Of a DNA stretch of 64,000 bases, positions 23,201 through 56,990 are shown piece by piece. Source of the stretch: Thunnus maccoyii (lineage: Eukaryota; Chordata; Actinopteri; Scombriformes; Scombridae); the NCBI RefSeq assembly GCF_910596095.1, contig NC_056538.1:21686501-21750500 (forward strand), read 5' to 3'. Position numbers and translations under genes: made by a program. Under the pieces are notes generated by a model. That model saw only the letters and a program-made list of their open reading frames with translations, was not told the origin of the DNA and did not search any database. How positions within the stretch are numbered: position 1 is the stretch's first letter; each line of letters starts with the position of its first letter.

Positions 23201-24235
23201 TACAAAGAGCAAACAAACAAATATATAATACTTTTGATAATTTAACTAAGTAAATATTTTTGAGGACTGTAGGATTCTTTATTACTGCAAGTGTAACACC
23301 TGCTTCAATATTCATTTTCAGATTCTATCACCTGTGTGCGTTGTCACCCTGAATTCTGGTCAAATGAGATAAGAGATGCCTGTGTGAGGAAAGACGCAGA
23401 GTTTCTGTCATATGAAGAGATTATGGGAGCGCTGCTCACTGCGGCGTCCTTATTTGGAACATGCATGACTGCTGCTGTGGCGTTCATTTTCTTCAGATAC
23501 AGGAAAACTCCCATAGTCAGAGCCAACAACTCTGAGCTGAGCTTCCTGCTGCTCTTCTCCTTGACTCTGTGTTTCCTGTGTTCTCTGACCTTCATAGGTC
23601 AGCCGTCTGAGTGGTCCTGCATGCTGCGCCACACAGCGTTCGGCATCACCTTTGTGCTCTGCATCTCTTGTGTTCTTGGGAAAACGATAGTAGTGTTAAT
23701 GGCCTTCAGGGCTACACTCCCTGGCAGTAATATGATGAAATGGTTTGGGCCTGTACAGCAGAGACTCAGTGTTCTGGCTTTTACTCTCATACAGGTTGTC
23801 ATATGTATCCTCTGGTTAACAATTTCTCCTCCTTTTCCTTTTAAGAATTTTAAAGAATTTAAAGATAAAATCATCTTAGAGTGTGCTCTGGGTTCAGCTG
23901 TGGGCTTTTGGTCTGTGATCGGCTATATAGGACTTCTGGCCATGTTATGTTTCATTCTTGCTTTTCTGGCACGGAAACTACCTGATAATTTTAACGAAGC
24001 CAAATTTATCACTTTCAGCATGCTGATATTTTGTGCGGTCTGGATCACCTTCATCCCAGCTTATGTCAGCTCTCCTGGGAAGTTCAGTGTTGCTGTGGAG
24101 ATATTTGCTATTCTGGCCTCCAGTTTTGGATTGCTCATTTGTATATTTATTCCAAAATGTTACATAATTTTATTGAAACCAGAGAAGAATACAAAGAAGA
24201 ATATGATGGGTAAAGGTGTACCAAAATCATTCTGA
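20215..24235 (+). CDS. Gene D: V2R/OlfC-like class C odorant receptor, 6 exons, 864 aa
   Basis: Putative olfactory class C GPCR, nearly identical to gene E. Exons: 20215-20450, 20645-20942, 21078-21872, 21968-22195, 22292-22415, 23322-24235. The ATG at 20215 precedes a signal peptide core [17 protein letters not shown]. The flytrap domain runs to about residue 519, the cysteine-rich domain spans about 520-580 ([17 protein letters not shown]), and the seven helices span about 594-850. Pocket-aligned residues are T184, D204, Y232 and Glu in VGSESW. The cytosolic end of TM6 carries the family's [15 protein letters not shown]. Intron 5 is long (906 nt) and lacks recognisable features. AATAAA lies at 24541-24546. 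Exon 2 is nine residues or so longer between the conserved cysteine blocks than in genes G and H ([13 protein letters not shown]). A few substitutions relative to gene E fall in the flytrap domain (SESW against TEGW). Confidence 0.94.
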
Positions 24236-24546
24236 AGACTGAATATAATATAATGACATACACATAATTCCAGTGTTGCTATATATTTTTTTTACATAAT
24301 TTGTTATTCAGACAAGTAGACCTCTGTTTTTATTGTACTGCAGTCATACAACACTACAGAAGTAAAGTAAAGTAGAGTAGTCTGCTGTATATAATTACAT
24401 AACTTGTGACATATCATATGGAAATATATAAAATGTAATTAAATAAAAAATAATTGCACATGATAAAGAAATAGAAATGGAAAGCCTTTTCTCATCTTTT
24501 CTTTTCTGAGTTTTCATTTAGTGCACTTTGCAGAATTGTTAATAAA

Positions 24547-24840
24547 GAGTAAAACCTATCATATCAATCAATTATGTTGGGTAAAATTACATTTTCCAGT
24601 TGCAAGAGACTACCATTGCTTCAATGTTGAAGAGCTGATGCTGCTTAAGAAAGTTGGTGAAATCAAGGTGGGAGGACTGACTGAAGGACCCGCAGCTGCC
24701 TATGGTTTCACTAATGGAAAAAAGGATTTATTGAATGTTCTTAACTAAATAAACTAAATAAGAAATATACGTATCAATATATCATAACATGCCTACAAGT
24801 AAGCTTTGCATTTAATGTAAAAAACAGTAGTTACTTGTTA
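24547..24840. other. Short spacer after gene D
   Basis: Nothing recognised beyond the end of the D/E duplication near 24560. The open frame at 24521-24748 has no counterpart in the duplicate flank and no recognisable domain. Confidence 0.45.
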
Positions 24841-25171
24841 GTTTTGATACTTTACATTGGGGGTAAGTAATGGCTTGAAGTAATGAGGAATATCTTCATA
24901 ACTTCTCAGTATTATCTGCCACTTTACTAGAGGGGGGCACAAAAAGGGAAGTTCTTGTCAACGATTAATCAATTATCAGGTCGTTCCTGATTCATTCTTC
25001 ACTGGTTTCTCAATTAACTAATCATTAACTAATGATTAGCTACTCTATGAAGTTTTGATTAGGAGTTACTCAAGAACTGCCCATTAACTAATGGTTTACT
25101 AGCAGTTAGTTCCTCATTTGTTCCTTGGTAACTACCCAAAATTTGGTGAACCTTATTGTAAAGTGTTACCA
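24841..25171. mobile_element. MITE with ACTTTACA-type terminal repeats at the D/E duplication border
   Basis: The right end reads CCTTATTGTAAAGTGTTACC (25151-25170). The left end has a degenerate inverted partner, TTTTGATACTTTACATTGGG (24842-24861). Ends of the form GGTAACACTTTACAATAAGG are common in fish non-autonomous DNA elements. The interior has inverted ATTAACTAAT/ATTAGTTAAT-like words. The right end abuts the start of homology between the gene D and gene E flanks. Confidence 0.6.
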
Positions 25172-25385
25172 TAAAAGGCATTGCACAAATGTTACTGTTA
25201 AAAAAGGAAATGTTTTGTACAATACAACTGAATATCCTAGTCTGATAACATATAAAGTAAAGATATTCAAAATAGGCCACAGCCCAAAACCCTTTTTCCA
25301 TTTGTGTACCTCCCGCCCCACCCTGTAGGTCCATGGAGACGACACATCACAGGTCTATTATTATTTTTTATGCCTCTCTAAAATG

Positions 25386-25393
25386 TATAAATA
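25386..25393 (+). promoter_or_regulatory. TATA box of gene E
   Basis: TATAAATA, 60-67 nt before the ATG at 25453, identical in sequence and spacing to that of gene D. Confidence 0.5.
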
Positions 25394-25452
25394 CCAGTGC
25401 AAGATTTTGACTTACATTAAGGTACATGTGATGTCACTCAGTGGTTTACAGA

Positions 25453-28400
25453 ATGACTTCTACACAGAGGTGGCCAGAGCAGGGTTGGGCACTCTTACAG
25501 CTGTTGTTGGTGGTGTCTTTCTCTCAAGCTGAGGAGCCAGTTTGCAGGCACAGAGGAGATCCTGAGGAGCCCCAGCTGTCTAAGGATGGAGACATTATGT
25601 TGGGGGGAATCTTTTCTTTCCACAGCAGTTGGAAAGACAGACAGAATACCTACATGCACAAACCACTGCCACTGCAGTGCACCAGGTATATAATGCCATA
25701 GAAATGTGTTTGGCATGAGTAGATTTAAAATATCTAAGAGGACACAAAAACAAAATTGTTATCAACTGATATTCTTTGCTGTATTAACACTGTCAAATGC
25801 TTTCATCTACTAAGCTGTTGTTTCAATTTCGTGCACACACTTGTTATAATGACAACTATTTATAACCATCTCTGTAAAGTTTGAATTTCAGAGGATTCCA
25901 GTTTGCCCAGGCTATGCTCTTTGCCATAGAAGAGATTAACAACAACACAGACCTTTTGCCTGGCATCTCACTGGGCTATAAGATCTATGATGCCTGTGGC
26001 TCAATTGCTAGAGGGGTGAGGGTTGCACTGGCCTTGGCTAATGGTAACGGAGATACATCTGTACTCTCAGAGGCACCTTGTACCAGACCTGCCCAAGTGC
26101 AGGCCATTATGGGAGAGACCTCTTCATCTCCTTGCATGGCTATAGCCACTGTCATCGGACCCTTTTATATCCCACTGGTGGGTAGGACTGGAAAAAATGA
26201 AAATCATATTTTTTCCTACACAGAGAAAATGTTGTTTGTGGTGTATGTGTAAACATTTTATATTTTAAATCTGTATCTTGGAACTTGAAAGAATGATTTC
26301 TTTCTTTCCTCTAGATCAGTCACTTTGCCACCTGTGCTTGTCTCAGTGATAAAGTCAAGTACCCATCTTTCCTAAGAACAATACCCAGTGATTACTACCA
26401 GAGCAGAGCCCTGGCCCAGCTGGTCAAGCACTTTGGTTGGACTTGGGTAGGAGCAATTAGAACAAATGATGATTATGGCAATAATGGCATGGCCACTTTC
26501 ACAGAAACTGCCCAGCAGCTGGGCATCTGTCTGGAGTACTCTGTATCCTTCTTTAGAACAGATCCACCAGACAAAATACAAAGAATAATTAACATTATCA
26601 AGGCTTCCACTTCCAAGGTGATTGTTGCTTTTCTCTCTCACATGGATATGGATGTACTGATACATGAATTGTCCTACCATAACTTGACTGGGTACCAGTG
26701 GGTTGGTACAGAGGGCTGGATCTTTGATTCCCAAACTGCAGCTATGGATAGGCATCACATTCTGGATGGTGCCATAGGCTTGTCCATCCCTAAAGCACAA
26801 GTCAGCGGCATGAAAGAGTTCATGTTGGATGTGAAGCCACTCAATACATCTAGTAATGAAATGTTTACAGAGTTCTGGGAGACGTTATTTAGCTGTGAGT
26901 TCAAGCAGACAAAGTCATCAACAGATAATCAGAGAGAATGTACTGGAAATGAAGATCTGACTGGAGTGCACAACAGTTTCACTGATATGTCACTTATGCC
27001 TATTTTTAACAATGTCTATAAAGGAGTGTATGCTGTGGCTCATGCACTTCATAGTGTTCTTGGCTGTAACAAAACATGTGATGACAAGGTGCAGCTAGAT
27101 CCATTAAAGGTGAATACAGCATCAAAGACTGAAATTATAGTTTTTACATTAAGTCACATCATCAAGAAATTAACTATGAATGCATATCTCCTTAGATTTT
27201 ACAGCACATAAGAAAGATTCAATTCAAAACTAAGGAAGGATATGAGGTTTACTTCAATGAGAATGGAGACCCAGCGGCAAAGTATGAAATTATAAACTGG
27301 CAGCCAACAGAAAATGGCCTTGTGGACTTTGTGACAGTTGGTCTTCATGATGCATCTTTACCTGCAGACAAACAGCTAAATCTGGAAAATAAATCTTTAA
27401 TTTGGGCAAAGAACTCATACCAGGTGAGCAGCCATGTGATTTCTTTAACACTGTATAATGTTAGGTTTAGCATTAATAATTGTGGCTTTTAAACACAGCA
27501 TTGCTTTTTGTTCATGCAGGTGCCTTTGTCAGTTTGCAGTGAGAAATGTCCCCTAGGAACACGCAAAGTTCTCCAGAAAGGAAAGCCTGTCTGCTGCTAT
27601 GACTGTATAAGGTGTGCAGAGGGAGAATTCAGCAACAGTACAGGTACTCTAGTAATATAAATAAAGCAGACTTTTTTAGCAATTGATGTTGGCCATGAAT
27701 CAGATTATTTTTTGATTTTCATGTTCATGTGCCAATTTTAAGAAATGGCATTCTTTTGTATTCTGTTCTTTGTATTCTGAGTTCATAGGGGGTTATGTAA
27801 TCATTATGTTGTCTGTTTTATTAAAATTATGTCAAACCAACATAAATGCATGAAACATATCAAATATATAATAAATATTAATATAGCAGTCTTACTATAT
27901 GATCTACATAAATTAGGCACAGTCTTAGAAATAAAAATCAGAGTTTATGTGATTCTTGTGTATTTAAAAACATTTTGATGGCATGTGTTTTTGTTTGTAA
28001 AAAAAATGTGATAATTCAAGTTATTCAAGTACTTTATTCGTTTCTGTATTTTCCACCATTGATTGTTTGTGTGCATTGTCAGCTGTGGTGTGTTTTAGAA
28101 GATATTTTCAAATCCTACACAAAGTAGAATTAAGAATATGTGCTTAACTAACAATCAAAAGAATTATCTACCTCTAATTGGTTGACTATAATCAAATCAA
28201 TTTTAATTGATAAATTATAAATCGCTTTCTTAGATTAACATTGCAATGGCGCTATTCAAAAAATCAATATAATGATTATGGAAGGGTCACTTCACCCAAG
28301 TTAGTTTCAGTTTGACCTGCCAGGCTTTTAATATAATTGGAGCTAAAATTGGAATCAAAGGTGAACAGAATTCTGTTTGTGGTGCTTAAAGCATTGATTA

Positions 28401-29581
28401 TATGAAAAAAACACACTATACAGTAAATGTCAAGAAGGCAAAGTACAAGAAAACAAAACACCCACAAAAATGATAATTCTGATAATTTAACCAAGTTAAT
28501 ATTCTTTAATGACTGGAGGATTCTTGATTATGCCATGTAGCTGTCATAAATGCATCTATTTTCTGTTAATCATGTAGCATCTGTCTTGTATGAGCAGAGT
28601 AGAGGCAACATAGAAACATAGATAAAAAGACTGCGAGTGTAACACCTGCTTCAATATTCATTTTCAGATTCTATCACCTGTGTGCGATGTCACCCTGAAT
28701 TCTGGTCAAATGAGATAAGAGATGCCTGTGTGAGGAAAGACGCAGAGTTTCTGTCATATGAAGAGATTATGGGAGCGCTGCTCACTGCAGCGTCCTTATT
28801 TGGAACATGCATGACTGCTGCTGTGGCGTTCATTTTCTTCAGATACAGGAAAACTCCCATTGTCAGAGCCAACAACTCTGAGCTGAGCTTCCTGCTGCTC
28901 TTCTCCTTGACTCTGTGTTTCCTGTGTTCTCTGACCTTCATAGGTCAGCCGTCTGAGTGGTCCTGCATGCTGCGCCACACAGCGTTCGGCATCACCTTTG
29001 TGCTCTGCATCTCTTGTGTTCTTGGGAAAACAATGGTAGTGTTAATGGCCTTCAGAGCTACGCTCCCTGGCAGTAATATGATGAAATGGTTTGGGCCTGT
29101 ACAGCAGAGACTCAGTGTTCTGGCTTTCACTCTCATACAGGTTGTCATATGTATCCTCTGGTTAACAATTTCTCCTCCTTTTCCTTTCAAGAATTTTAAA
29201 GAATTTAAAGATAAAATCATCTTAGAGTGTGCTCTGGGTTCAGCTGTAGGCTTTTGGTCTGTGATCGGCTATATAGGACTTCTGGCCATGTTATGTTTCT
29301 TTTTTGCTTTTCTGGCACGGAAACTACCTGATAATTTTAACGAGGCCAAATATATCACTTTCAGCATGCTGATATTTTGTGCGGTCTGGATCACCTTCAT
29401 CCCAGCTTATGTCAGCTCTCCTGGGAAGTTCAGTGTTGCTGTGGAGATATTTGCTATACTGGCCTCCAGTTTTGGATTGCTCATTTGTATATTTATCCCA
29501 AAATGTTATATAATTTTATTGAAACCAGAGAAGAACACAAAAAAGAATATGATGGGTAAAGGTGCACCAAAATCATTCTAA
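25453..29581 (+). CDS. Gene E: V2R/OlfC-like class C odorant receptor, 6 exons, 863 aa
   Basis: Tandem duplicate of gene D. Exons: 25453-25685, 25880-26177, 26315-27109, 27196-27423, 27520-27643, 28668-29581. It has one codon fewer than gene D in the signal-peptide exon ([10 protein letters not shown] against [11 protein letters not shown]). Flytrap, cysteine-rich and seven-helix domains occur at the same places, with helices from about residue 593. Pocket-aligned residues are T183, D203, Y231 and Glu in VGTEGW, so the neighbours of the distal pocket residue differ from gene D. Helix-region changes include [12 protein letters not shown] against [12 protein letters not shown], and NEAKYITF against NEAKFITF in the third intracellular loop, a site tightly conserved in the array. 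AATAAA lies at 29916-29921. Intron 5 (1,024 nt) has diverged from that of gene D by several indels. Confidence 0.94.
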
Positions 29582-30030
29582 AGACTGAATATAATATGGT
29601 CGCATACACATATTTCTATCTTTCTATTTCTTTATTTTTACATAATAATTTGTTATTCAGACAATTATGTAGAGCTCTATCTTCGTTGTACCTCAGTAGT
29701 ACAATACTACAGAAGTAGAGTACAGTAGTGTATCATTTTCGTATCATTTTTGCTGTATATCATTTGTGACATAGTACATGGAAATAACAGCATTATACAA
29801 TGTAATTACATTTTTTAAAAAAGGCACATGATGAAGAAATAGAAATGGAAAGCCTTTTCTCAACTTTTCCTTTCTGATTTCTCATTTAGTGCTCTTTGTA
29901 GAATTGTTATTAAAGAATAAAATCTACATTTTGACAGACAAAAACATCTTTGGCCTAACTTGTTTGGTTTCCTCTGGTCTCCTGAGGCTTTAGCTCAACC
30001 ATGACAACTTCATCCTTGTTGTCGATGGTG

Positions 30031-34812: not shown

Positions 34813-34852
34813 CAGTTGTACATTTTTATCAGTATTTCATTTGTTAAATTGA

Positions 34853-35000
34853 ACTGACATACGCTGGGATAAAGGTGATCCAGACTGCACAGAATATCAA
34901 CATGCTGAAGGTGACGAATTTAGCTTCATTGAAATTATATGGCAACTTCTGTGCCAAACAAGCAATCAGAAAATATGAAAAAACCAGTAGCCCCGTATAA
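34853..35000 (-). pseudogene. V2R seven-helix fragment, opposite strand (pseudogene)
   Basis: Read on the minus strand, 34854-34960 gives [20 protein letters not shown] followed by ITFIPAYVS. This is the third intracellular loop, TM6 and the start of the last extracellular loop of a V2R. Further upstream on that strand (to about 35000) a degraded TM5 can be followed only with a frameshift. No other exon is attached. It is the only V2R-related sequence on the minus strand in the window. Confidence 0.85.
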
Positions 35001-38689: not shown

Positions 38690-39141
38690 ATCAGCCACTT
38701 TGTAACCTGTGCATGTCTAAGCAACAGAGAGGAGTTTCTATCCTTCTTCAGAACTATTCCCAGTGACCTTCACCAGAGCAGAGGCCTGGCAAAACTGATC
38801 AAGCACTTCGGCTGGACTTGGGTGGGGGCAATAAGTAAAAAAAAAACGATGGTATCAACGGGATGACTACAAGAAGAGGGGGTGTGCACAGAGTTTTACC
38901 AGGCATTTGATCAAGCAGGTCCTCTTTAAGTAGTTGACACTGTTAATTGTTCCACCTCTAAAGTCACTGTGGCCTTCATGTCACACTGAGAAATTACTGT
39001 GCTGGAAACTGAGTTGTACAGACAGAACATTACAGGACTGCATTGGGTTGGCAGTGACGCCTGGGTCACAGATCACTCTCTGACTGACAGTGAGGGACAC
39101 AGCATTCTGGTGGACTCCCTGGGTTTCAATGTGAGCAGAAT
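38690..39141 (+). pseudogene. Broken V2R exon 3, closest to gene F
   Basis: After an AG acceptor-like site, frames read [44 protein letters not shown], and later [20 protein letters not shown] and [19 protein letters not shown]. This is the first half to two thirds of a V2R exon 3. The VGSDAW...[14 protein letters not shown] stretch matches gene F and no other gene here. The frame is broken by in-frame stops, a run of ten A's with frame loss, and deletions. The copy ends abruptly after about 450 nt. No exon 1-2 or 4-6 is attached, so it is a dead fragment of a former neighbour or duplicate of gene F. Confidence 0.92.
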
Positions 39142-39887
39142 TTTTGCATGTCCTTTAAGTGGGGCTGGGCAATATGGCAAAAAATTTATTTATTTTTTTG
39201 AAAGTCTCTTTTTTTCCCCCTGCACAAATATTTCCAGACAAAAACATTATTTAGCCTTGTATGTTTTTGAGGACTACATGTTTTTATCAGGATCAGAAAA
39301 ATAACACACATTTTTTTTAGGCTTAACCACATTAGAAATGTCTAATAACTGCTGTGCAGGAGTAAGAAAAGAATGTCACCAACTTGGTGCATGTAAATTA
39401 AAAAAATATCTAGAGTATGTATCTAAAGTATGTATATACTATGCATAAATAGAGCAGAACTTGCAGATCAACTTTAAGATAAATATCACACTAAGTTTCA
39501 GATAGAAAAAGCATAACTCCAACTTCAGTAAGGTTCAAGTCTGCATAATAATTAATTATATTATTGATGATGATAATACCAAACTCAGTACAAATACACA
39601 ATATAGTAATGATAAAACAATAAATAACTAGGTTTAAAAGAATAACAGTAAAAACACATTATAAGACATAATCAAATCATTAAGTTTATCATTTATACCA
39701 ATGGTTTTCCAACTGTGACATATCAAAATGTCCTCATAAAAAAGGCCTATAGTGTTTTGTGGAGGGCTGTGCTTCATAGGTTGTGGGCATAACATGCAAC
39801 AACTGATGGTGGTGCAAGCATGATTTCAAGCTGAGGTGTAGTTACTCCTGAATAATCGCTGAAACTGAAAATCTGGTCACCAATAAA
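39142..39887. other. AT-rich spacer, nothing recognised
   Basis: No coding or repeat feature with clear borders was seen. Confidence 0.4.
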
Positions 39888-40359: not shown

Positions 40360-40990
40360 TCCATTACTCTGCTTCAGCCCTGACCTCTCTAAACAGCTAG
40401 TCAGTACCTGGATATGTGGTAGCAACAGTCTGAACAAAGTAGAATCTGTACACAGTTCAGTCCGCTCCCTCTTCCCATAACTAAAGATAATTTTTTGTCA
40501 ATAAACACAAACCAAGAGCACAGAACAGTGTCTTTTTTCAGTCCTATAAGAACAATAACCAATTAGCTTGACCCACAACAGTCCCATTAACTGTGACATA
40601 TGCTTTGTATTTGATGCATTTAAATATACAGTATACTGCACTGCTTACATAACATTTAAATACGTAATTGCTTTAAAATATATCCAGTGTTAGGGCACAC
40701 TTAATACTTGCTGGTTTTTGGAAACAGCTGTAAAAATGTAAAGGCACTCATAGAAATACTCTTATTAAACACTCAACAATCAATTGTTATTGGGAGCCCA
40801 GGTGTATTCCTGTCACATTTATTCGTCATGCCTGACATCCTTGAGCTCTTATGCAAAAAAAACAAAACAACAAATAAGTGCATTTACCTTAGAGAATGGC
40901 CAACGAAGTTGCCTCCTACACCTGGGTAGCAGACAAGAAGCTATAAAACACAACCTTGCAAGAATCCTGACTGTGCCAAAGGCGAGGCTC
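40360..40990. other. Spacer upstream of the diverged V2R-like gene
   Basis: Nothing recognised. No convincing TATA was found close to the ATG at 40995 (CTATAAAAC at about 40940 is the nearest). Confidence 0.4.
40940..40948 (+). promoter_or_regulatory. Possible TATA box of the diverged V2R-like gene
   Basis: CTATAAAAC lies about 50-55 nt before the ATG at 40995, which is the spacing seen for the intact genes of the array. If real, the relic still has a promoter-like arrangement. Confidence 0.35.
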
Positions 40991-40994
40991 TGAG

Positions 40995-43876
40995 ATGACA
41001 ACAGTCACGTTTGTCTTCTTAACACTGTGGCTCAGCCTGGACCAGTGTACTGAGCTCAGTCAGTATGGGCATGATGAAGAGACAATGGGCTTCAGCTCCA
41101 ATACGTCACATAAAAGAGCCCTTGTTTATGACAAAACAAAACTGACACTGACAGTTGAGAGGTGAGTAAATTGTTGGTGAATTACAGTGTTGTCTGTTTT
41201 CTCAATTTTTTCCACTGGTTTCTTTCTCAGTAACTTGCTTTTATTTATTTATTTATTTTGTCAAGGACTTGGATACCCCAGTGTGGTTTCCCACAGATTC
41301 ATCAGCAATTAGCTTGCAATTTAATGATTTCCTCAGTGGGGAACCAGTCTGAATTATGGGGACCTAAACACCATATTTAGAGACACCTCAAAAGACAATT
41401 AGACAATCTCTAGAGGAGCTTATGGGTCATTTACAATTTGAAGTAATTTCACTGTTATTATATGCAAAGTAATAACCTCACAGTTTTAATTATGTAATTA
41501 TGCTTTTTTAGATTGCAGCTATTTAAGCTTATATTTACTACAAATGCTGAGTTGAGAGATTGATGCAATGTATAATGGTAATTAAATGCTATGATAGTGT
41601 CATAATTATATATGTGATAATTTGCCACATCATGTAACCAGGAACTGATATTTGTTTTGTTTTTTTCATGTTCTAGATCTCCTCAAATGGAGAGGATTTT
41701 CACACAGGACAAGATAAAAAAAGACTGTGCTCTCTTTCCTGGTGTGACTTTGAACTGTGTGCTCCTTAATGGCTATGTGACCCTGTTCCAAAGAGTCAAA
41801 GAGGCTGTAAATTTAGGGAAACAAAGCAGACATGTCTGCAAATGTAAAATTCAGCAGTTGTTGATATGTTTTCTGTCTGAGGCCAAGTGTCCCCTATCTA
41901 TAGTAAAGGTGAGCAGCAGAAGGTTTGAACAGGAGTCTTCTTCACCATATTACATGCAAAATTAAATTTGAATTTACTTTACAATACCGCACTCAAAAAT
42001 TGTTGCCATACTGACATACGTGTTTATGCTCAATTTATTATGATATTCAATAACTGTCTGTATTTTTCTTCCACGCAGATAAATACTGATGATCACAGCA
42101 CACATGTGAATTGCAGAGATATCTGTCCTTCATTTGTTCTCTTGAGATCCATGGCTCACTGCTCCCACACCATTGCCCTTGTTCTAGCAGACCACTGGAA
42201 AACCATGGATTGTACTTACATCTGTAAAGCATGCAACGTGGAAGTCAAAATTGAGCAGGTGTTCTTTGGACCACGTGGCCTCACATTTTCAGAAACCCTT
42301 ATTTTCATCCCACCTGAGAATCAAGTGAGTCTTATGTCCCCAGAAAAATCAAAGGGGGGTCACATCTGGATCTACTGTATGCATATTTGCATGGACACCT
42401 GTTTAGTGTCTTATTCTGCCTCAGTATCTGAAGGTTCATGTTTTTCACATTATCAGCAGTGCTAAAACAAATATGAACATATATTTAAACCATAGCAGGT
42501 ATTTATTTGCCTGTATAATGTTAAAATAAGTTAAATTACTTACTATAATATCCTTTTACCTACAGAAATGGATGCTGTGAGGACAGATATTTAACTTTCT
42601 GCTGATATAAGAGGAATGTGAAAAAAACATACTCCATCCTTTCTGTGAATTAATGCATAATTTGCAAAGAAACACTTTGAGATTTTCACATAGATTTTGA
42701 CAATATGGGTAAAATGTTATACATATTTTTTTTTTAGTATATCGATATATATTGTGATACAGTACAGTTTATATATATTTACATTTTAAACTCAGTTATG
42801 AAACCATTAATAAATGCAATAACTAGAATGTCTGTCCAGTGAATTCATGCCCCTTGATGCATATTGATGCAAATCTTTAAATCCAATATGACCATATTGC
42901 AGTAACCACAGAACAAATGGTATAGTAAAGTCTGATGGCTGACAAATGTATATAATCTCACAGTATATATTGTCATATTTCTCACTGGTCTTTATACAGT
43001 GTGTGTAATTTGTGTGCATTACCTCATTTTTATGTCTTGTTCACTGCAGATTCCATCAAATTATGCAACACATCGTGCAAAAGGAGCATTTCTAACACAA
43101 GCAGGTGATATTAAAAAAACATTACAGGAAGAGCATTTCTTAAGTTCATTAAATAGTTATGTAATAACCTATAACTTTTTCTTTTTTTATTGACTGTGTA
43201 TACAGACAGGGAGGAGAGGTGGCCTACAGACACCAGCCGATGGGTTGGAAGATTTTTTGTGGCAGCTGTGTTACTGGTTGGAATCTACATAACCAGGATG
43301 AAAATATCACCAAACAGAGTCAGTCCTCCTCATGGCAGTAACTCCACGATGATGATGCTTTTTACCATGACATTGTATTGTTTTTCACCATCAGTTACCA
43401 TCTATCAGCCATCAGAATGGTCGCAGATAGCTGTCTGGATTTCTTTTGTCGTCTGCCCCTCTTGTGCTGTAGGGAAAACCGTACATGTGTTAATTGCCTG
43501 CAGGGCAGCTCATACTGTCATTAAACTGTTTTGTCCCACACAGCAGCAGTTTAGGGCTCTGCCTGTTACTGTGTTGTTTCTCTGGTTGACTTTCAGCCCT
43601 CCTTTTCCAAATAAGAATCTGAAACTCTGGTTTGAAGACATGCTTCTGGGAGGTAGTGTGGGATCAACACTACAATCCTGGACTGCGTTTGGAAATATAG
43701 AGCTACTGGCAACTTTGTACTGCGTGTTTGTCTCACTCCCCAGTTTGCTACAATCCATCTTGACTAAATTAAATTTCTTGAGCGTTCTCTTACATGTGCA
43801 ATTGATAACGTGTCTACAGAATTCAAGGGTACCAATAAAGTATGTACTGGTTATTAAGATCAACAGGTTAATTTAA
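40995..43876 (+). CDS. Strongly diverged V2R-derived gene, 5 predicted exons, about 456 aa (gene or decaying pseudogene)
   Basis: Predicted exons: 40995-41161, 41677-41908, 42079-42324, 43050-43104, 43206-43876. Each junction has GT/AG sites, and the phases (2, 0, 0, 1) equal those of V2R exons 1, 2, 3, 5 and 6; exon 4 is missing. The joined frame is open. Exon 1 begins with a signal peptide (MTTVTFVFLTLWLSLDQC). Exon 2 (FPGVTLNCVLLNGY, EAVNLG, CKIQQLL) aligns with gene G ([27 protein letters not shown]). Exon 3 is cut to 82 codons. The 55-nt exon 5 has lost every cysteine. Exon 6 keeps QPSEWS, VGKTVHVLIACRA, FLWLTFSPPFP and six or so hydrophobic segments, but lacks FNEAK and the usual tail, probably after a frameshift near 43750. 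It cannot bind or signal as a normal V2R. It is either a slowly decaying pseudogene or a gene with a new role. Confidence 0.5.
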
Positions 43877-46370: not shown

Positions 46371-46710
46371 CAGGAAAGTTGTGCAAAACAAAAATAGATA
46401 TGTTATTCTTTAATACAAACAACACCCAAATACAATCTTTCCACAAAACCTTCAGAATGACTGACAGAGTGCCCCAATACATTGGTATTTTTCAAAAGCA
46501 CTACTTATAAAAGAAACAAAAAACAATGACATGAAGTCATTAGGAACAAATTGATTGACAAAGTCATGAAAAATTGGAATGAAAGAATAAAGCATCTGTG
46601 AGATATGACAAAAGTATACCTCTGGAGACTACAGGTACTCCAGTCAGTGGGATTAAGGTTAAAAGATCGTGATTCATATTCATATCATTTGGGAATTGGC
46701 AGTGTGCTCT

Positions 46711-46753
46711 CATTGGCTGGTGATGTTTCTGTTCTCACATAAAAGCTATAAAG
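46711..46753 (+). promoter_or_regulatory. Putative core promoter of gene G (inverted CCAAT plus TATA)
   Basis: CATTGGCTGG at 46711-46720 and TATAAAG at 46747-46753. Both are conserved with identical spacing before gene H. Confidence 0.5.
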
Positions 46754-46784
46754 ATCAGGTCCCAGGTCACAATTGCTTCAGTGA

Positions 46785-49700
46785 ATGGGGGGGTGGCTCG
46801 TGATGGGTTGGATCACTATCATCTTACTTACTCTGCTGGCAACAACAAAGTCAGAAAATCAAACATGCAGAGTGATTGGGCAGACAGGGTTCATGGAATT
46901 TTCTAAAGAAGGTGATCTTATTATAGGAGGAGTTTTCTCTATGACTAGTACACGTACAGTGGTAGATAATGACTACCAGGCAATTCCATATGCATACTGC
47001 AAAAAGTAAGTAAATATGCTTAAAATATGTACAAATGTTGTGTTTTACATGTTACTATGTATTGCAAAATGATCAGCTGTTGTGTCAACAATTAACACTG
47101 TGTTTGCAGGTGGAATGACAGGGAATTGAAGTTTGCTCGAACTTTAATTTTCACGGTGGAGGAGATCAATAGAGATACTAAGCTCCTCCCAGGAGTGAGT
47201 CTGGGCTACAGGCTCTACAATGGCTGTGGGAGTGAAAACCTGATACGAGCAGCTGTTGAGGCTGTAAATGGAGAGGATTCAAAGGGCTGCAAGAGTCAGA
47301 TCCAGGCTCTTTTAGGCCATTCATCCTCTGGAGTAAGTGAAGACATAAACCACATACTAAGCCCGCTATCCATTCCACAGGTGAGGATGGGAAATAAATG
47401 GAAAATAATGGGAAATAATTGCAAACTCTCCAAATTTCATTGTCCAAACTGTTTATTCATATTTGCATTTCGACCAAAAATATGCCTTATTTGGATTTAA
47501 CATGTTTGTTTTTTCTTTGAAGGTAAGCTACCTTTCAACCTGTGCTTGTTTGAGTGACAAGAAACTTTACCCCACCTTCTTCAGAACTGTGCCAAGTGAC
47601 CGCTTCCAAGTCATAGGCCTGGTGCAGCTTATGAAATATTTTGACTGGCGCTGGGTGGGGGTTATTTATTCAATGGGAAGCATGTACTCAGAGAGAGGTA
47701 CAGCCGAATTTGTAGAGGAAGCAATTAAAGAGGGAATATGTGTTGAATACAGATTGCCTTACACAAAGACATCTGAAAAGAAGATTAATACTATTGTAGA
47801 GACAGTAAGGCAATCCTCTTCAAAAGTAGTCCTGTTGTTCATGTCCTTGTCTTACACCAAATCAATCTTGTCAAAAATGGAGAATTATAACATAACTGGA
47901 AAGCAGTGGATTGGCACTGAGTCTTGGATCACACAACAAGACCTGGCTTCTGTCAAGAGAAAGAGCATTTTACAGGGAGCGATGGGCTTTGCCCTCCCCC
48001 TGGCATCCATTCCAGGTCTCGGTGAATTCTTACTCGACTTGAAACCATCTGATGAACCACAGAGTGCAATAATTAAATCTTTCTGGGAGAAGTTTTTTGA
48101 TTGCAGCTTCTCTCCATCAAACACCTCTACTATGTGTACTGGCACAGAAGATCTGAAGACAGTTTCTAGTGACTACACAGACGTGACAAATTTCAGGGCT
48201 GAGAATAATGTGTACAAAGCTGTGTACTTGGTGGCATATGCCCTTCAAGCGCTACTGCAATGTAAAGATGGCTCAAATCCCACCACAGGAAAGCCCTGTG
48301 TGAGCAAGAATGAAGTTCAGCCTAAGCTAGTGAGTTCTGGTGTATTAAATCAGGCATAGGCATTTCTATTCTTTGTGGTCAATGCAAAACATATATCTAC
48401 GTTTTATATTAAGATTTATAAAACTTATAAGATTTATAAAATTTATTATTAAATTTCACAATTTTATGTCTTGCATCTTTTTTGTTTGCTAAAATGTGCA
48501 AATTCTGTCTTTATAGGTGTTGGAACATATTCAGTATGTGAATTTCACAACACAAAATGGAGCCAAAGTGTCCTTTGATGAAAATGGAGACTCAGTTGCC
48601 CAGTATGACTTAGTTAACTGGCAGATGAAAGAAGATGGCTCTGTTGAGATTGTAAATGTTGGTCGATATGATACCTCTTTTCCAGATGGGAAAAAATTCA
48701 AACTTAAAGATGACACCAAAATAGTGTGGGGGGGGAACAGTGATGAGGTAAACTGAATTTTGGGTTCTTTTACAACTAAATGACAATTGTTACTTACACA
48801 GGAGCTTAGTAAATATTGCATTGTCAGTGACATACAATACATTTATTGTATTAGTTTTAATATGCTGTGTTTTGCCTAATCAGGTGCCAAGGTCTGTCTG
48901 CAGAGAACCGTGCCCACCAGGGACTCGCAAGGCCATAAACAAGCGTAAGCCTGTGTGCTGCTTCGACTGCTTTAAATGCCCAGAGGGAACAATAAGTAAT
49001 CAGACAAGTGAGTAAGATTTCAAAATTGAATTCATTAATCTGATGTTTTGTAAGCAAAATTGAAAAAAGAGTAAGAGAATGATAAAAAGATATATGTTTA
49101 TTTCCTTATTTCTGTATTGTGATTGTACGTCTGTATGATTTCACATCTCTTACAGATTCTCCAGACTGTTTGATCTGTCCGCCTGAATTTTGGCCAAATG
49201 AAAAGAGAGATCAGTGTCTTCCAAAACCTACTGAATACCTTTCCTACAAAGAGATCATGGGGGCAATTTTGACTGGATTTAGCTGTGTTGGTGTATTTTT
49301 ATCTCTTTTAACATCAATAATATTTTTGACTCATAAAGAAACTCCAATTGTAAAAGCCAACAACTCTGAGCTGAGCTTCTTGCTGCTCTTCTCATTAAAA
49401 CTGTGTTTCCTGTGTTCTCTGACCTTCATAGGTCGGCCCACTGAGTGGTCCTGCATGCTGCGCCACACAGCATTCGGGATCATCTTTGTCCTTTGTATTT
49501 CCTGTGTTCTTGGTAAAACTGTAGTAGTGTTAATGGCCTTCAGAGCAACGCTTCCTGGCAGTAATGTCATGAAATGGTTTGGGCCTCTTCAGCAGAGGCT
49601 CAGTGTTCTGATTTTCACTCTCATTCAGGTTCTGATTTGTATACTTTGGTTAAGTACCAACCCTCCATTCCCAAAGATGAATATGAAGTACTACAAAGAA

Positions 49701-50069
49701 AAGATCATCTTAGAGTGTGCGCTGGGGTCAGCTGTTGGATTCTGGGCTGTGTTGGGTTATATAGGAATTCTTGCTCTCTTGTGTTTTATACTTGCTTTTC
49801 TTGCTAGGAAGCTGCCAGACAGCTTTAATGAAGCCAAATTGATCACCTTCAGCATGCTGATATTCTGTGCTGTCTGGATCACATTTATCCCAGCGTATGT
49901 CAGTTCTCCTGGGAAGTTCACTGTAGCTGTAGAGATATTTGCAATTCTGTCCTCCAGTTTTGGTTTACTGATATGTATATTTGTTCCAAAATGCTATATT
50001 ATTATCTTCAAGCCAGAACGAAACTCAAAAAAACATCTGATGGGGAAAATACCACCAAGAACTCTGTAA
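46785..50069 (+). CDS. Gene G: V2R/OlfC-like class C odorant receptor, 6 exons, 855 aa
   Basis: Putative olfactory class C GPCR of a distinct subfamily shared with gene H. Exons: 46785-47005, 47110-47380, 47523-48329, 48517-48747, 48884-49007, 49156-50069. The first ATG (46785) gives six extra residues; the ATG at 46803 ([12 protein letters not shown]) is the only start kept in gene H and may be the real one. The flytrap domain runs to about residue 510, the cysteine-rich domain spans about 511-570 ([17 protein letters not shown]), and the seven helices span about 585-845. Pocket-aligned residues are T170 (in STC), D190, Y219 and Glu in IGTESW. The DYG motif is replaced by MYS, and one residue is inserted relative to all other genes. 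The serine-rich block before exon 3 is also altered ([12 protein letters not shown]). The third loop reads [12 protein letters not shown], where most others have [18 protein letters not shown] lies at 50155-50160. Confidence 0.94.
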
Positions 50070-50576
50070 TATGTAGTTCAAAGATGTCAAATCAAATTAT
50101 TTATTGTGTAGTCTGACGGATGCTGTAGAAGTCATTGTTTTGTGTAATGTGCTAAATAAAACAAATCCACCAACAGCCTTTGCTCCATTTATTTGTGCTA
50201 TTGAGAGATAATGAGACTTATTTTGCAGAAAAATAAAATAATATATAAAGACATTCAACAGATACCTTAAATTGTTTTGGGATCTTCAGTGTATGACAAG
50301 CTAAGAAATACTATACTGAGTGGGAAAAGTGACCAAGAAACATTTCCCCCTCTAACGCCATCAAGGTGTCCATTAGCAGTTATTATTTAAAGAATGTGAA
50401 AATAAAAAGGTGAAAATATAAGAACAAAGGAGTGTACAAAGACACATCTCTACAAGGAACTGCACTTTAAATCTAAGTAAAATGAACACTGTTTCTGTGG
50501 ATTGTCCAGATATTTAATATCAGTATCAAAAAAATATATATAAATAGCATAAATAATATATATAATTTGTGAACAG

Positions 50577-51580
50577 CCACCAGGGGGCGATCAAGATGCT
50601 TTGGCTTCACTTTTGGGGAGCTGTCATGATGTCCATCTTCATATAGTCAATGGTCAAAACCTACTATATGGCTGGACCGTGTATGGCCAATGAGTGGAAT
50701 TGTGGCCAGTTTGTTACAGGGATAGCCACTGGTAGTGTATATAATATGAATTTCTGGATATTAAATGTTCATCTACAATTTTCTGTAGTGGTCCCAGTAA
50801 TATTGGCTGGTAAAGTGTGCTGAAGTAGCATATCACATGACATGGTCAGAGTGATTGTTATTTGGGGTGCTTTAACTATATGCACTCCCTCATGCCTCTG
50901 TGCACCTTTTTCTGCCTCTTTCCCTGTCGATGATTACGGAGGCTGTGGTGGAAATTGTAAATGACAGCTTTGACAATATTTTGGGTGCAAATTCAGGAGG
51001 CTCATCTCCACCTGATTACTACAGTTACAGTCAAATCAAGTGCACCTGCAGAGCAGCCACCCCACACTAAACTGATATAACAGCCTACATGAGTTGCGTG
51101 TTTTACCTGCAAGACTTGTGTTTTAATGCTGTTGTTCATTGTTTGTGATGTGGAAATGTCAGAGAAATAAAAAGCTTGCGTCCTGGCATTAGTTCAGTTA
51201 TAAAATCCAAATGCACCACGGAGCATCTTTCTTGCTGGCTGCTGGTGCTGTGTGGCTGACAGTGCTGTCAGCCGAAGAGACAATCACACTGAACGGTAGA
51301 GGAGAGGACGGTAGAGACACTGGTACGCATGTGTTTAAACAGGTGTTTAGCCGACTTCACTGCATTTAACACCAGAGGTGAGACCGTCAGTGCTTGAAGC
51401 AGGAAACACAGCCACTCTGTGTTGTGCTGCTATCCTTTGATTCCATCATCTTGCGCCGATTCATTTTGAAAGAGCAAGGGCCTATGGGGAAACTCCAACA
51501 CTCGGCCAGCTGACCAATGGTGTAACATCATCACTTACTCAGTCAGTCACTCACGGACAACCCCAGTTATAGGGCTGGTC
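50577..51580. repeat. Interspersed repeat, copy 1 (three-copy family in window)
   Basis: This begins with the common fish repeat words GCCACCAGGGGGCGATCAAG and GGGGAGCTGTCATG. From 50651 (TGGTCAAAACCTACTATATG) it matches 61721 onward. Its later part (51215-51400; CACGGAGCATCT, GGTAGAG, AAACAGG.GTTTA, GCATTTAACACCAGAG) matches 57400-57550. It lies exactly at the right border of the gene G duplication and next to a pogo-like transposase fragment. Family and full length are unknown. Confidence 0.65.
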
Positions 51581-51581
51581 C

Positions 51582-52212
51582 ATGGCTGGTCCAGCCAAAA
51601 AAGGGATAAAGGGCTTCTCCGAAACCAAGCAAAAAGCTGGCTATGCCTGGTTTCAGGGGTTCCTAAAGCAGAAACCTAACCTGAGTATCAGAAAGCCTGA
51701 GGGTCTTTCCACTCTCAAAGCAGCCGGCTTCAACCGCCCAGCAGTTATGAAGTGCTTCAGTGATTATGAAGATATCATTAAGTCCCTGGGCTTAGAAAAT
51801 GCACCAGACCATATTTTGAACTGCGATGAGACAGGCCTGCAGGACCACTTCCTCTCCTCCAGGGTGTTTGCTGAGTTCGGGGAACCATATTTTGAGTGGG
51901 GGAGGCAATTTGTGTTGCAAAGCCTGTCAAGAGATGACCCATGCCTACATGTTCTTCTGCTTGATGGACAGAGCTCCCACATTTAGAATATTTCCATCTT
52001 GAGGCCCAGTCCTTCCAGTACCCTGTGGAGGCAGCCGTGCACCCCCCTCACTTCTGTCCTGAGGCCCACCCCTTGCAGGACCCTGTGCAAGCAGCTGTGA
52101 ACTCTCCTCACCTCCATCCTGAGGTGAACCCTATGCATGCCCCTCTTCAGCAGCATCATTGTCAGTGCCCACTGGCAATGCCTCAGGATGTTGTACCACC
52201 TCTAGCACGTTA
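51582..52212 (+). mobile_element. pogo/Tigger-like DNA transposon, transposase fragment
   Basis: A 134-codon frame reads SETKQKAGYAWFQGFLK, SIRKPEGLS, AAGFNRPAV, NCDETGLQ and LLLDGQSSHI. These are hallmarks of DDE_1 (pogo/Tigger/Jerky) transposases, with the first and second catalytic Asp motifs. The segment between NCDETG and LLLDG is shortened and the frame stops right after. A second frame (52025-52212) is rich in Pro and His, like the tail of such proteins. This is a dead internal-deletion copy. It lies directly against the left border of the copy that carries gene H (52233). Confidence 0.85.
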
Positions 52213-53177
52213 GGTTGAGGTGAAGACTGCAGTGTGCATGTTTGCAAGTACACCTGTTTAGTGTCTTATACTGCCTCACTCTCTGAAGAATCATGTTTTT
52301 CATGTTATCAGCAGTGCTAAAACAAAAAAAGAACAAATATTTAAACCATAGCAGGTATTTATTTGCCCGTGTATCATTTAAAAAATAAGTAATCATTTTA
52401 CCTCCAGAAATGGATGCATTAATGCATAATTTGCAAAGAAGCACTTAGAGGTTTTTACGTAGATTTGGACAATATGGATAAAATGTTATATATAATTCTT
52501 TTACTGTGATATCAATATATATTGTGACATAGTACAATTTATGTACATTTTACATTTTAAATTCAATTGTGAAAACATTAATAGATGAAATAACTAGAAT
52601 GTCAGTCCAGTGAATTCATGCCCATTGATGCAAATCTTTAAATCCAATATGACCATATTGCAGTTACCACAGCACAAATGGTATAGAAAAGTTTGATGGC
52701 TGACAAATTTATATAATCTCACAGTATATATTGTCATATTTCCCACCCATATTTGCTCATACAATATGTATACAAGAAATGGGAAAAAGATCCAGCACAC
52801 GTATGGTACACTTGTTACCCAGTTTTATACTAGTTCCATACACTTCACTGATATAAACCACTGAATTATACTGAATTGCTAATAATTACTAAAATTTCAG
52901 TTCCACCTCTCTGTCTTTCCATAAATGCAACTCCTTATTCCTCTCTCTTACTCTCTGAGTGACGTTTATACGTCAGTATCTATCTTTTAATTAATTTCCA
53001 TTCCTTGTAGCAACGCCATTTCACCAAATCCAGGCAGTCACCTCCCTCCAACCCTGGTCTGGAAGAGGGTCCTGAAGGAAGTTGCATGTTCAATACCTAC
53101 GCTACCCTAAAAGCACTTTTATTGAAAAACAAAAAATATTCCTATTCATATCATTCGGGAATTGGCGGTGTGCACTC

Positions 53178-53219
53178 ATTGGCTGGTGATGTTTCTGTTC
53201 TCACATAAAAGCTATAAAG
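53178..53219 (+). promoter_or_regulatory. Putative core promoter of gene H (inverted CCAAT plus TATA)
   Basis: ATTGG at 53178-53182 within CATTGGCTGG, and TATAAAG at 53213-53219. Same arrangement as gene G. Confidence 0.5.
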
Positions 53220-53268
53220 ATCAGGTCCCAGGTCAAAATTGCTTCAGTGAACGAGAGGGTGGCTCGTG

Positions 53269-56200
53269 ATGGGTTGGATCACTATCATCTTACTCACTCT
53301 GCTGGCAACAACAAAGTCAGAGAAACAAACATGCAGAGTGATTGGGCAGACAGGGTTCATGGAATTTTCTAAAGAAGGTGATCTTATTATAGGAGGAGTT
53401 TTCTCTATGACTAGTACACGTACACTGATAGATAATGACTTCCAGGCAATTCCATATGCATACTGCAAAAAGTAAGTGAATATGCTTAAAATATGTACAA
53501 TCACATGTTGTGTTTTACATGTTTTTATGTGTTGCAAGATGATCCGCTGTAATAACTTGTTTAGTGGTGCTGTGTCAAAACTTAACACTGTGTTTGCAGG
53601 TGGAATGACAGGGAATTGAAGTTTGCCCGGACACTGATTTTCACGGTGGAGGAGATCAACAGAGATACTAAGCTCCTTCCAGGAGTGAGTCTGGGCTACA
53701 GGCTCTACAATGGCTGTGGGAGTGAAAACCTGATACGAGCAGCTGTTGAGGCTGTAAATGGAGAGGATTCAAAGGGCTGCAAGGGTCAGATCCAGGCTCT
53801 TTTAGGCCATTCATCCTCTGGAATAAGTGAAGACATAAACAACATACTAAGCCCGCTATCCATTCCACAGGTGAGGATGGGAAATAAATGGAAAATAATG
53901 GGAAATAATTGCACACTCTCCAAATTTCATTGTCCAAAGTGTTTATTTATATTTGCATTTTGACAAAATAGGATTTAACATGTCTTTTTTTCTTTGAAGG
54001 TAAGCTACCTTTCAACCTGTGCTTGTCTGAGTGACAAGAAACTTTACCCCACCTTCTTCAGAACTGTGCCAAGTGACCGTTTCCAAGTCATAGGCCTGGT
54101 GCAGCTTATGAAATATTTTGACTGGCGCTGGGTGGGGATTATTTATTCAGTGGCCATGTATTCAGAGGAGGGTACAGCTGAATTTGTAGAGGAAGCAATT
54201 AAAGAGGGAATATGTGTTGAATACAGATTGCCTTACACAAAGACATCTGAAAAGAAGATTAATACTATTGTAGAGGCAGTAAGGCAATCCTCTTCAAAAG
54301 TAGTCCTGTTGTTCATGTCCTTGTCTTACACCAAATCAATCTTGTCAAAAATGGAGAATTATAACATAACTGGAAAGCAGTGGATAGGCACTGAGTCTTG
54401 GATCACACAACAAGACCTGGCTTCTGTCAAGAGAAAGAGCATTTTACAGGGAGCGATGGGCTTTGCCCTCCCCCTGGCATCCATTCCAGGTCTCAGTGAA
54501 TTCTTACTCGACTTGAAACCATCTGATGAACCACAGAGTGCAATAATTAAATCTTTCTGGGAGAAGTTTTTTGATTGCAGCTTCTCTCCATCAAACACCT
54601 CTACTCTGTGTACTGGCACAGAAGATCTGAAGACAGTTTCTAGTGACTACACAGATGTGACAAATTTCAGGGCTGAGAATAATGTGTACAAAGCTGTGTA
54701 CTTAGTGGCATATGCCCTTCAAGCGCTACTGCAATGTAAAGATGGCTCAAATCCCACCACAGGAAAGCCCTGTGTGAGCAAGAATGAAGTTCAGCCTAAG
54801 CTAGTGAGTTCTGGTGTATTAAATCAGGCATAGGCATTTCTATTCTTTGTGGTCAATGCAAAACATATATCTACGTTTTATATTAAGTATTCATTTAGGG
54901 TACAATTGTAATACAAAATTTTATGTCTTGCATCTTTTTTGTTTGCTAAAATGTGCTGATTCTGTCTTTATAGGTGTTGGAACACATTCGGTATGTGAAT
55001 TTCACAACACAAAATGGAGCCAAAGTGTCCTTTGATGAAAATGGAGACTCAGTTGCCCAGTATGACTTAGTTAACTGGCAGATGAAAGAAGATGGCTCTG
55101 TTGAGATTGTAAATGTTGGTCGATATGATACTTCTTTTCCAGATGGGAAAAAATTCAAACTTAAAGATGACACCAAAATAGTGTGGGGGGGGAACAGTGA
55201 TGAGGTAAATTGAATTTTGGGTTCTTTTACAACTAAATGACAATTGTTACTTACACAGGAGCTTAGTAAATATTGCATTGTCAGTGACATACAATACATT
55301 TATTGTATTAGTTTTAACATGCTGTGTTTTGCCTGATCAGGTGCCAAGGTCTGTCTGCAGAGAGCCGTGCCCACCAGGGACTCGCAAGGCCATAAACAAG
55401 CGTAAGCCTGTGTGCTGCTTCGACTGCTTTAAATGCCCAGAGGGAACAATAAGTAATCAGACAAGTGAGTAAGATTTCAAAATTGAATTCATTAATCTGA
55501 CATTTTGTAAGCATAATTGAAAAAAAGAGTAAGAGAATGATAAAAAGATTTATGTTTATTTCCTTATTTCTGTATTGTGATTGTACGTCTGTATGATTTC
55601 ACATCTCTTACAGATTCTCCAGACTGTTTGATCTGTCCGCCTGAATTTTGGCCAAATGAAAAGAGAGATCAGTGTCTTCCAAAACCTACTGAATACCTTT
55701 CCTACAAAGAGATCATGGGGGCAATTTTGACTGGATTTAGCTGTGTTGGTGTATTTTTATCTCTTTTAACATCAATAATATTTTTGACTCATAAAGAAAC
55801 TCCAATTGTAAAAGCCAACAACTCTGAGCTGAGCTTCTTGCTGCTCTTCTCATTAAAACTGTGTTTCCTGTGTTCTCTGACCTTCATAGGTCGGCCCACT
55901 GAGTGGTCCTGCATGCTGCGCCACACAGCATTCGGGATCACGTTTGTCCTTTGTATTTCCTGTGTTCTTGGTAAAACTATAGTAGTGTTAATAGCCTTCA
56001 GAGCTACGCTTCCTGGCAGTAATGTCATGAAATGGTTTGGGCCTCTTCAGCAGAGGCTCAGTGTTCTGATTTTCACTCTCATTCAGGTTCTGATTTGTAT
56101 ACTTTGGTTAAGTACCAACCCTCCATTCCCAAAGATGAATATGAAGTACTACAAAGAAAAGATCATCTTAGAGTGTGCGCTGGGGTCAGCTGTTGGATTC

Positions 56201-56527
56201 TGGGCTGTGTTGGGTTATATAGGAATTCTTGCTCTCTTGTGTTTTATACTTGCTTTTCTTGCTAGGAAGCTGCCAGACAGCTTTAATGAAGCCAAACTGA
56301 TCACCTTCAGCATGCTGATATTCTGTGCTGTCTGGATCACATTTATCCCAGCGTATGTCAGTTCTCCTGGGAAGCTCACTGTAGCTGTAGAGATATTTGC
56401 AATTCTGTCCTCCAGTTTTGGTTTACTGATATGTATATTTGTTCCAAAGTGCTATATTATTATCTTCAGGCCAGAACGAAACTCAAAAAAACATCTGATG
56501 GGGAGAATACCACCAAGAACTCTTTAA
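53269..56527 (+). CDS. Gene H: V2R/OlfC-like class C odorant receptor, 6 exons, 848 aa
   Basis: Tandem duplicate of gene G, nearly identical. Exons: 53269-53471, 53600-53870, 54000-54803, 54974-55204, 55341-55464, 55614-56527. The upstream ATG of gene G is ACG here, so the start is the ATG at 53269 ([18 protein letters not shown]). Domains occur as in gene G, with helices from about residue 579. Pocket-aligned residues are T164, D184, Y212 and Glu in IGTESW. It lacks the one-residue insertion that gene G has before the pocket tyrosine (SVAMYSEEG against [10 protein letters not shown]). The helix region keeps [12 protein letters not shown]. It has [11 protein letters not shown] where all others have GKF(T/S)VAVEIFA. 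AATAAA lies at 56584-56589, in the same context as gene G. Confidence 0.94.
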
Positions 56528-56990
56528 TATGTAATTCAAGGGTGTCAAATAAAATCATTTATTGTGTTCATTGTGATGTGCTAAATAAAGCAAATCCACC
56601 AACACAAGCCTTTTTTCATTAATTTGTGTTTTTGCAAGATAATGAGATTTGTTTTGCACAAAAAAAAAAAATATATATATATAAAGACATTCAACAGATA
56701 CCTTCAATTGTTTCGGTCTCTTCAGTGTATGATAAAGTGTCAAGTGTGTGAGTGTATGAGAAATACTATATTGAGTGGGGAAAGTGACATAAGTGTCCAT
56801 TAGTAGTAATTATTTGAAGAATGTGAAAATAAAAAAGTGAAAATATAAGAACCAAGGACACAAAGTTTCTACAAGGAACTGCACTGTACAACTATACACT
56901 GTACAAAATTGTTTCTGTGGATAGTCCAGACATTTAATATCAGTATCAAAAATAATTTATAAATAATATATAACTTTGTAAACAGCAAGA

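What the first reader, a model, noticed from the sequence alone, without database searches (positions are those of the whole stretch)
40995..43876. A V2R-derived gene that has lost the receptor hallmarks but kept one open, phase-matched frame
The five predicted exons keep the ancestral phases (2, 0, 0, 1) and good splice sites. Their total (167+232+246+55+671 nt) is an exact multiple of three with no internal stop. Yet exon 3 lost about 560 nt, exon 4 is gone, exon 5 lost every cysteine, and the helix exon has several length changes. Such changes normally break the frame of a neutral pseudogene, so frame keeping hints at translation constraint. A signal peptide and hydrophobic segments remain. 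The FNEAK coupling loop and pocket motifs are gone. Against it: the 3' end looks frame-shifted, the exon 5 donor is weak, and chance cannot be excluded.
Basis: partly seen in the sequence, partly recalled or inferred. Interest (0 to 1): 0.75.

Follow-up and report, generated by a model that had tools for sequence, protein, structure and literature searches.

The report
Broken smell-receptor gene, frame still open
In a cluster of fish smell-receptor genes, one copy has lost parts that a working receptor needs, yet two of its pieces have stayed readable as protein far longer than chance allows, so it was probably kept for some use after it stopped being a receptor, or it died only recently.

Summary
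The window lies in a V2R/OlfC cluster with nine genes whose six exons are all matched. The 1,371-nt reading at 40995-43876 is open as described, but a total divisible by three is automatic for an ATG-to-stop reading. Only exons 2 and 6 are demonstrably V2R; exons 1, 3 and 5 match no V2R exon, and an in-frame middle path arises in 7% of shuffles and 5 of 40 noncoding windows. Frame-keeping in the homologous parts is real: 180 helix-exon codons at 42% identity hold no stop or frameshift; neutral simulations at 0.2 or more substitutions per site gave 0 of 400 such cases; a decayed exon nearby, 68% identical, has two of each. Branch dN/dS is 0.43, below 1; the constraint runs from TM2 to early TM5 and is not seen at the 3' end. 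Receptor hallmarks are gone; Pfam reports no 7tm_3. Best reading: a receptor-dead V2R paralogue kept in frame under weak selection, still coding or recently dead. Transcripts and orthologues were unavailable.

The parts
40939..40948 (+). TATA-like box (candidate core promoter)
   Evidence: Ten-base match AAGCTATAAA to the box upstream of g7, but z only 1.9, below the best shuffle: suggestive
40995..41161 (+). putative exon 1: ATG and hydrophobic N-terminus
   Evidence: Open, strong donor; exon-like codon make-up p 0.015; no detectable similarity to g7 exon 1 or to the local exon 1 profile
41677..41908 (+). exon 2, remnant of the first ligand-binding lobe, nearest g7/g8
   Evidence: 25 of 72 residues identical to g7; DNA z 18; 54 codons aligned to g7 without stop or frameshift
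42079..42324 (+). putative exon 3 (identity not established)
   Evidence: Open; exon-like codon make-up p 0.002; no similarity to V2R exon 3, 4 or 5 above shuffles or by profile
42372..43007 (+). noncoding segment duplicated at 52227-52772
   Evidence: 86.9% identity over 542 aligned nt; one other near-full copy found in the genome
43050..43104 (+). putative exon 5 (identity not established; needed for frame)
   Evidence: Canonical splice sites; no detectable similarity to V2R exon 5
43206..43876 (+). exon 6, remnant of the seven-helix exon
   Evidence: DNA z 33; 180 codons at 42% identity to g6, 0 stops, 0 frameshifts, nine codon-sized gaps; constraint in the TM2 to early-TM5 part, none seen in 43701-43873

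Best explanation
The locus is an old V2R/OlfC paralogue, nearest to its downstream neighbours g7 and g8. Shown: it has lost receptor hallmarks (the TM3 and ECL2 cysteines, four residues before TM3, five residues at the start of TM4, the FNEAK loop, the C-terminus from TM7), while exon 2 and the TM2 to early-TM5 part of exon 6 stayed open in the ancestral frame, and the focal branch has dN/dS below 1. Inferred: selection for a translatable product outlived receptor function, so a shortened membrane protein was made for most of this lineage's history; it is either still made or died recently. Inferred and least certain: if still made, its N-terminal hydrophobic stretch sends it to the ER and it acts, if at all, without G-protein coupling, for example by pairing with intact V2Rs and changing their assembly or export.
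For: Frame-aware alignment of exon 6: 180 codons, 42% identity, no stop or frameshift. Neutral simulation with locally calibrated indels (34 indels per 339 substitutions, 9 of 34 multiples of three): 2 of 480 runs clean over 170 or more codons, both at 0.10 substitutions per site without indels; 0 of 400 at 0.20 or more. Stop simulation: about 12.5 stops expected if all differences from g7 were neutral, 0 seen; P(0) 0.086 if 5% were neutral, 0.008 if 10%. Branch dN/dS 0.43 (exon 6) and 0.47 (exons 2+6), 1 rejected with 2dlnL 10.28 and 9.60; TM2 to early-TM5 columns 0.32-0.42 over three placements, 2dlnL 4.66-16.56. Decay control at 38690-39139: 2 stops and 2 frameshifts in 149 codons at 68% identity. 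Uneven residue retention p 0.0026 and mild replacements p 0.006. No exact match to a paralogue over 12 nt in exon 6, so no recent gene conversion patch. If the duplicated segment dates from 0.072 substitutions per site ago, neutral decay since then leaves 768 nt of exons 2 and 6 clean with P about 0.002.
Against: The focal branch includes any time when the gene was still a receptor, so dN/dS below 1 does not prove constraint now; its length is saturated. The 3' end looks neutral: dN/dS 0.79, not different from 1, and intron-like codon make-up. Two further tests were not significant: clustering of kept residues p 0.19, permuted replacements p 0.11. Codon make-up is hardly frame-specific. Exons 1, 3 and 5 lack homology. 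No transcript data, no orthologue, and no sister copy found in the 263.5 kb of cluster searched.
Confidence: 0.5

Rival explanations
1. A recently dead gene: a fast-evolving V2R stayed a coding receptor until recently, then lost its middle exons, its cysteines and its C-terminus, and has had little time to gather stops.
For: About 5% of the differences may be neutral without a stop being likely; the 3' end already looks neutral; V2R exons in the cluster do decay.
Against: Losses inside the helix core (6, 12, 9, 15 and 6 nt) are all multiples of three against 9 of 34 in local introns, and they would all have to fall in the short time after death; if the duplicated segment marks the rearrangement, neutral decay since then is unlikely to have left the frame clean (P about 0.002).
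Confidence: 0.33
2. A chimeric relic: the 5' exons of one V2R and the helix exon of a neighbour were brought together by a deletion, with intergenic DNA as the intron.
For: The intron segment's only near-full relative lies in intergenic DNA about 0.5 kb upstream of g8; exon 2 is nearest g7/g8, while exon 6 is about equally far from most paralogues.
Against: Of three placements of exon 6 tried, the one with g7 has the best likelihood. It does not by itself explain the open frame.
Confidence: 0.08
3. An old neutral pseudogene whose open frame is chance helped by the choice of splice sites.
For: An in-frame path through the middle arises in 7% of 300 shuffles and in 5 of 40 real noncoding windows; the multiple-of-three argument is circular.
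Against: Exon 6 alone, without any splice choice, is open over homologous codons at a divergence where 0 of 400 neutral runs were; stops are missing.
Confidence: 0.07

Closest known systems
Fish V2R / OlfC receptors (here g7 at 46.8-50.0 kb and g8 at 53.3-56.5 kb)
   Same: Exon 2 and exon 6 homology, gene orientation, place in the cluster, intron phases at the exon 1/2 and 5/6 joins of the model
   Different: No demonstrable exon 3, 4 or 5; helix exon with codon-sized losses, no FNEAK loop, no TM7; no Pfam 7tm_3 match where g7 scores 283 bits
Truncated V2R genes of genome surveys (category defined in passages of PMC10869828)
   Same: No proper full-length CDS (1,371 nt against at least 2,100) and no loss-of-function mutation in the homologous parts
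   Different: Long, unusually diverged and apparently under selection, not a fresh fragment
Decayed V2R exon 3 at 38690-39139 in the same window
   Same: Leftover V2R exon among working genes
   Different: 68% identical to g6 and already with 2 stops and 2 frameshifts

Membership tests
Intact OlfC/V2R gene (criteria in passages of PMC1764893) | begins with a signal sequence | tested here: inconclusive
   Hydrophobic N-terminus read directly; no predictor run; exon 1 has no detectable homology
Intact OlfC/V2R gene (criteria in passages of PMC1764893) | stop codon after the seventh transmembrane segment | tested here: not met
   Stop falls within the TM7 position of the paralogues
Intact OlfC/V2R gene (criteria in passages of PMC1764893) | significant alignment to all six exons | tested here: not met
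   Only exons 2 and 6 align
Intact OlfC/V2R gene (criteria in passages of PMC1764893) | no internal frameshift, significant deletion or stop | tested here: not met
   No stop or frameshift but large deletions
Intact OlfC/V2R gene (criteria in passages of PMC1764893) | conserved intron phases | tested here: inconclusive
   Model phases 2, 0, 0, 1; the two middle exons are unproven
Class C seven-helix receptor (Pfam 7tm_3) | profile match above the cut-off | tested here: not met
   No family at E up to 1 for the product or for exon 6
Neutral V2R pseudogene | stops and frameshifts in proportion to divergence, dN/dS 1 | tested here: not met
   Not met for exon 2 and TM2 to early TM5; not excluded for the 3' end
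Expressed protein-coding gene | spliced, translated transcript | not testable with these tools
   No RNA data at hand

The most novel reading that the evidence does not exclude
A V2R copy has been turned into a non-receptor membrane protein, built from a piece of the ligand-binding lobe and the TM1-TM5 part of the helix bundle, that is still expressed and selected in this fish, perhaps as a partner or regulator of neighbouring V2Rs.
Probability: 0.3. Interest if true: 0.65.

Novelty: new variant of a known kind. Interest (0 to 1): 0.4.

Why it matters
Genome surveys sort V2R copies by completeness and loss-of-function mutations (for example PMC10869828, passages), and Pfam does not recognise this copy at all. 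If it is still coding, some copies counted as dead or overlooked would be a reservoir of repurposed membrane proteins. The test is simple: orthologues and olfactory RNA.

Tried and rejected
Abundant transposon in the intron: not supported as the simple account. For 42372-43007 the genome search found one other near-full copy, in two pieces, and 8 matches of 39-81 bp; that search skips very common words, so rarity is not proven. V2R exon 3 or exon 5 origin of 42079-42324: I saw a loose cysteine pattern, but frame-aware and profile searches gave chance scores. Gene conversion keeping exon 6 open: no exact match over 12 nt. AlphaFold2 of exon 6: mean pLDDT 42.3, so no fold search was made. Tree of 24 helix exons: the focal branch is saturated and its place unresolved. 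Frame-blind pairwise DNA alignments: gap lists depend on the costs; the share of aligned bases in ancestral phase was 0.60-1.00 over 36 alignments. PDB search with exon 6: calcium-sensing receptors only, best E 0.075. Fits that failed and were not used: exon 2 alone; the 3' columns with the g6 or g9 placement. In one search the single 100-nt indel of the 34 was left out of the length list. The other copies were not used as decay controls, because several minus-strand ones seem to have an extra intron; the only decay control is 38690-39139.

Full report
Setting. The 64-kb window lies at C6:21686501-21750500 of a 782-Mb genome in 54 contigs. It holds nine V2R/OlfC genes, called g1-g9 here, for each of which all six exons are matched. 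The finding sits between g6 (30.1-33.3 kb) and g7 (46.8-50.0 kb). 'Fish' is inferred from the receptor type and the cluster; the record is unnamed. That teleost V2Rs cluster between two landmark genes is from passages of PMC9018814; I did not look for the landmarks.

The observation. The five segments read 456 aa without a stop, with phases 2, 0, 0, 1. The multiple of three carries no weight, because any reading from ATG to stop in one frame has it. What carries weight is whether parts with independent homology stayed in the ancestral frame. Two parts have such homology. Exon 2 aligns best to g7 and g8 (25 of 72 residues each; 14.5-25.3% with the other seven; DNA z 18 against g7). Exon 6 is 26-35% identical to all nine (DNA z 33 against g7). 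Putative exons 1, 3 and 5, the introns, the promoter and the 3' flank are not alignable to g7 beyond chance, and profiles of the cluster's exons 1, 3, 4 and 5 find nothing. The exon 2 profile gives only 9.3 bits in the right frame, the exon 6 profile 67.4 bits. The middle of the model is therefore unproven: an in-frame path with acceptable splice sites exists in 7% of 300 shuffled middles and in 5 of 40 real noncoding windows; the focal DNA has two, one of which skips 42079-42324.

Frame. An aligner that may pay for stops and frameshifts uses none in 180 helix-exon codons at 42% identity to g6, with nine codon-sized gaps. In the nucleotide alignment the losses between 43331 and 43783 are 6, 12, 9, 15 and 6 nt; further 3', losses of 1 and 5 nt cancel and 3 nt are gained; further 5', losses of 7 and 5 nt lie close together, and a 10-nt gain is uncertain. 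Frame-blind pairwise alignments are noisier. Introns of the young pairs g7/g8 and g4/g5 give the local neutral pattern: 34 indels for 339 substitutions, 9 of 34 multiples of three. Simulating this from g6 (12 classes of 40 runs), 2 of 480 runs stayed clean over 170 or more codons, both at 0.10 substitutions per site without indels; at 0.20 or more, 0 of 400. Runs at 0.5-0.6 with indels were sometimes clean, but over short alignments (mean 133 and 60 codons). A stop-only simulation over exons 2 and 6 expects about 12.5 stops if all differences from g7 were neutral; with 5% neutral P(0) is 0.086, with 10% it is 0.008 (1000 runs per class). The natural control at 38690-39139 has 2 stops and 2 frameshifts in 149 codons at 68% identity.

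Selection. At sites of exon 6 invariant in nine paralogues, 51 of 124, 54 of 154 and 21 of 37 changed at codon positions 1, 2 and 3 (third against first and second, Fisher p 0.032). A two-ratio codon model of my own gives the focal branch dN/dS 0.43 in exon 6 and 0.47 with exon 2, against 0.16 and 0.20 elsewhere; 1 is rejected (2dlnL 10.28 and 9.60). Two other placements give 0.28 and 0.22; columns from TM2 to early TM5 give 0.32-0.42 with 2dlnL 4.66-16.56 over three placements; the 3' columns give 0.79 with 2dlnL 0.25 (g7 placement), and the other two fits there failed; the control branch g2 gives 0.22. Of 150 residues invariant in the paralogues, 44 are kept, 72 replaced and 34 deleted. Keeping is uneven (p 0.0026): 36 of 74 from ICL1/TM2 to early TM5, 6 of 62 after that (summed from the bins, gaps counted as lost). 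Replacements are milder than a mutational null (p 0.006), but the adjacency test (p 0.19) and the permuted-replacement test (p 0.11) were not significant. Codon make-up is exon-like for putative exons 1 and 3, exon 2 and 43208-43700, and not for 43701-43873, though other frames score nearly as high in several.

What was lost. CMLR before TM3 with its cysteine, the ECL2 cysteine, five residues at the start of TM4, the FNEAK loop, and everything from within TM7 on (helix names follow recalled class C topology). Pfam reports nothing for the product at E up to 1. That these parts matter for class C signalling is established knowledge, not tested here.

The segment at 42372-43007. One other near-full copy was found in the genome, about 0.5 kb upstream of g8: 86.9% identical over 542 nt, K80 0.145. 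If one copy came directly from the other, it is about 0.072 substitutions per site old; neutral decay since then would leave 768 nt of exons 2 and 6 clean with P about 0.002, and the full reading clean in 0 of 4000 runs. This argues for constraint after the rearrangement, but the order of segment arrival and exon loss is unknown, and a lost third copy would weaken the date.

Verdict. The most likely account is a V2R copy that ceased to be a receptor and was nevertheless kept translatable under weak selection; whether it lives today is open. Literature: I saw passages of PMC1764893, PMC10869828 and PMC9018814, and the listings; nothing in them describes such a gene, and I claim no more than that.

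Noticed in passing
38690-39211: Decayed V2R exon 3 next to the finding, 68% identical to g6 over 149 codons, with 2 stops and 2 frameshifts; used as decay control.
   Followed up: partly
34850-34999, minus strand: Fragment of a V2R helix exon, 78-80% identical to its neighbours over 50 codons, in opposite orientation to the genes of the window.
   Followed up: no
42372-43007 and 52227-52772: Noncoding segment shared by the finding's intron and the DNA upstream of g8, 86.9% identical; no other near-full copy found in the genome.
   Followed up: partly
L010 7019-7998 and L027 8762-9733 (minus strand), with similar copies at C6:21.78-21.93 Mb: Several minus-strand class C helix exons align with extra stretches of about 25-54 codons inside, as if an extra intron split this exon; V2R genes are described with six exons.
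   Followed up: no
20150-29850 and 46600-56760: g4/g5 and g7/g8 are young tandem duplicates: exons differ by 64 of 2588 and 47 of 2559 nt, introns and flanks by 219 of 1724 and 120 of 1079.
   Followed up: partly
51573-51986: 137-codon open frame that recalls a pogo/Tc-type transposase (recalled resemblance; no Pfam match at E up to 0.1).
   Followed up: partly
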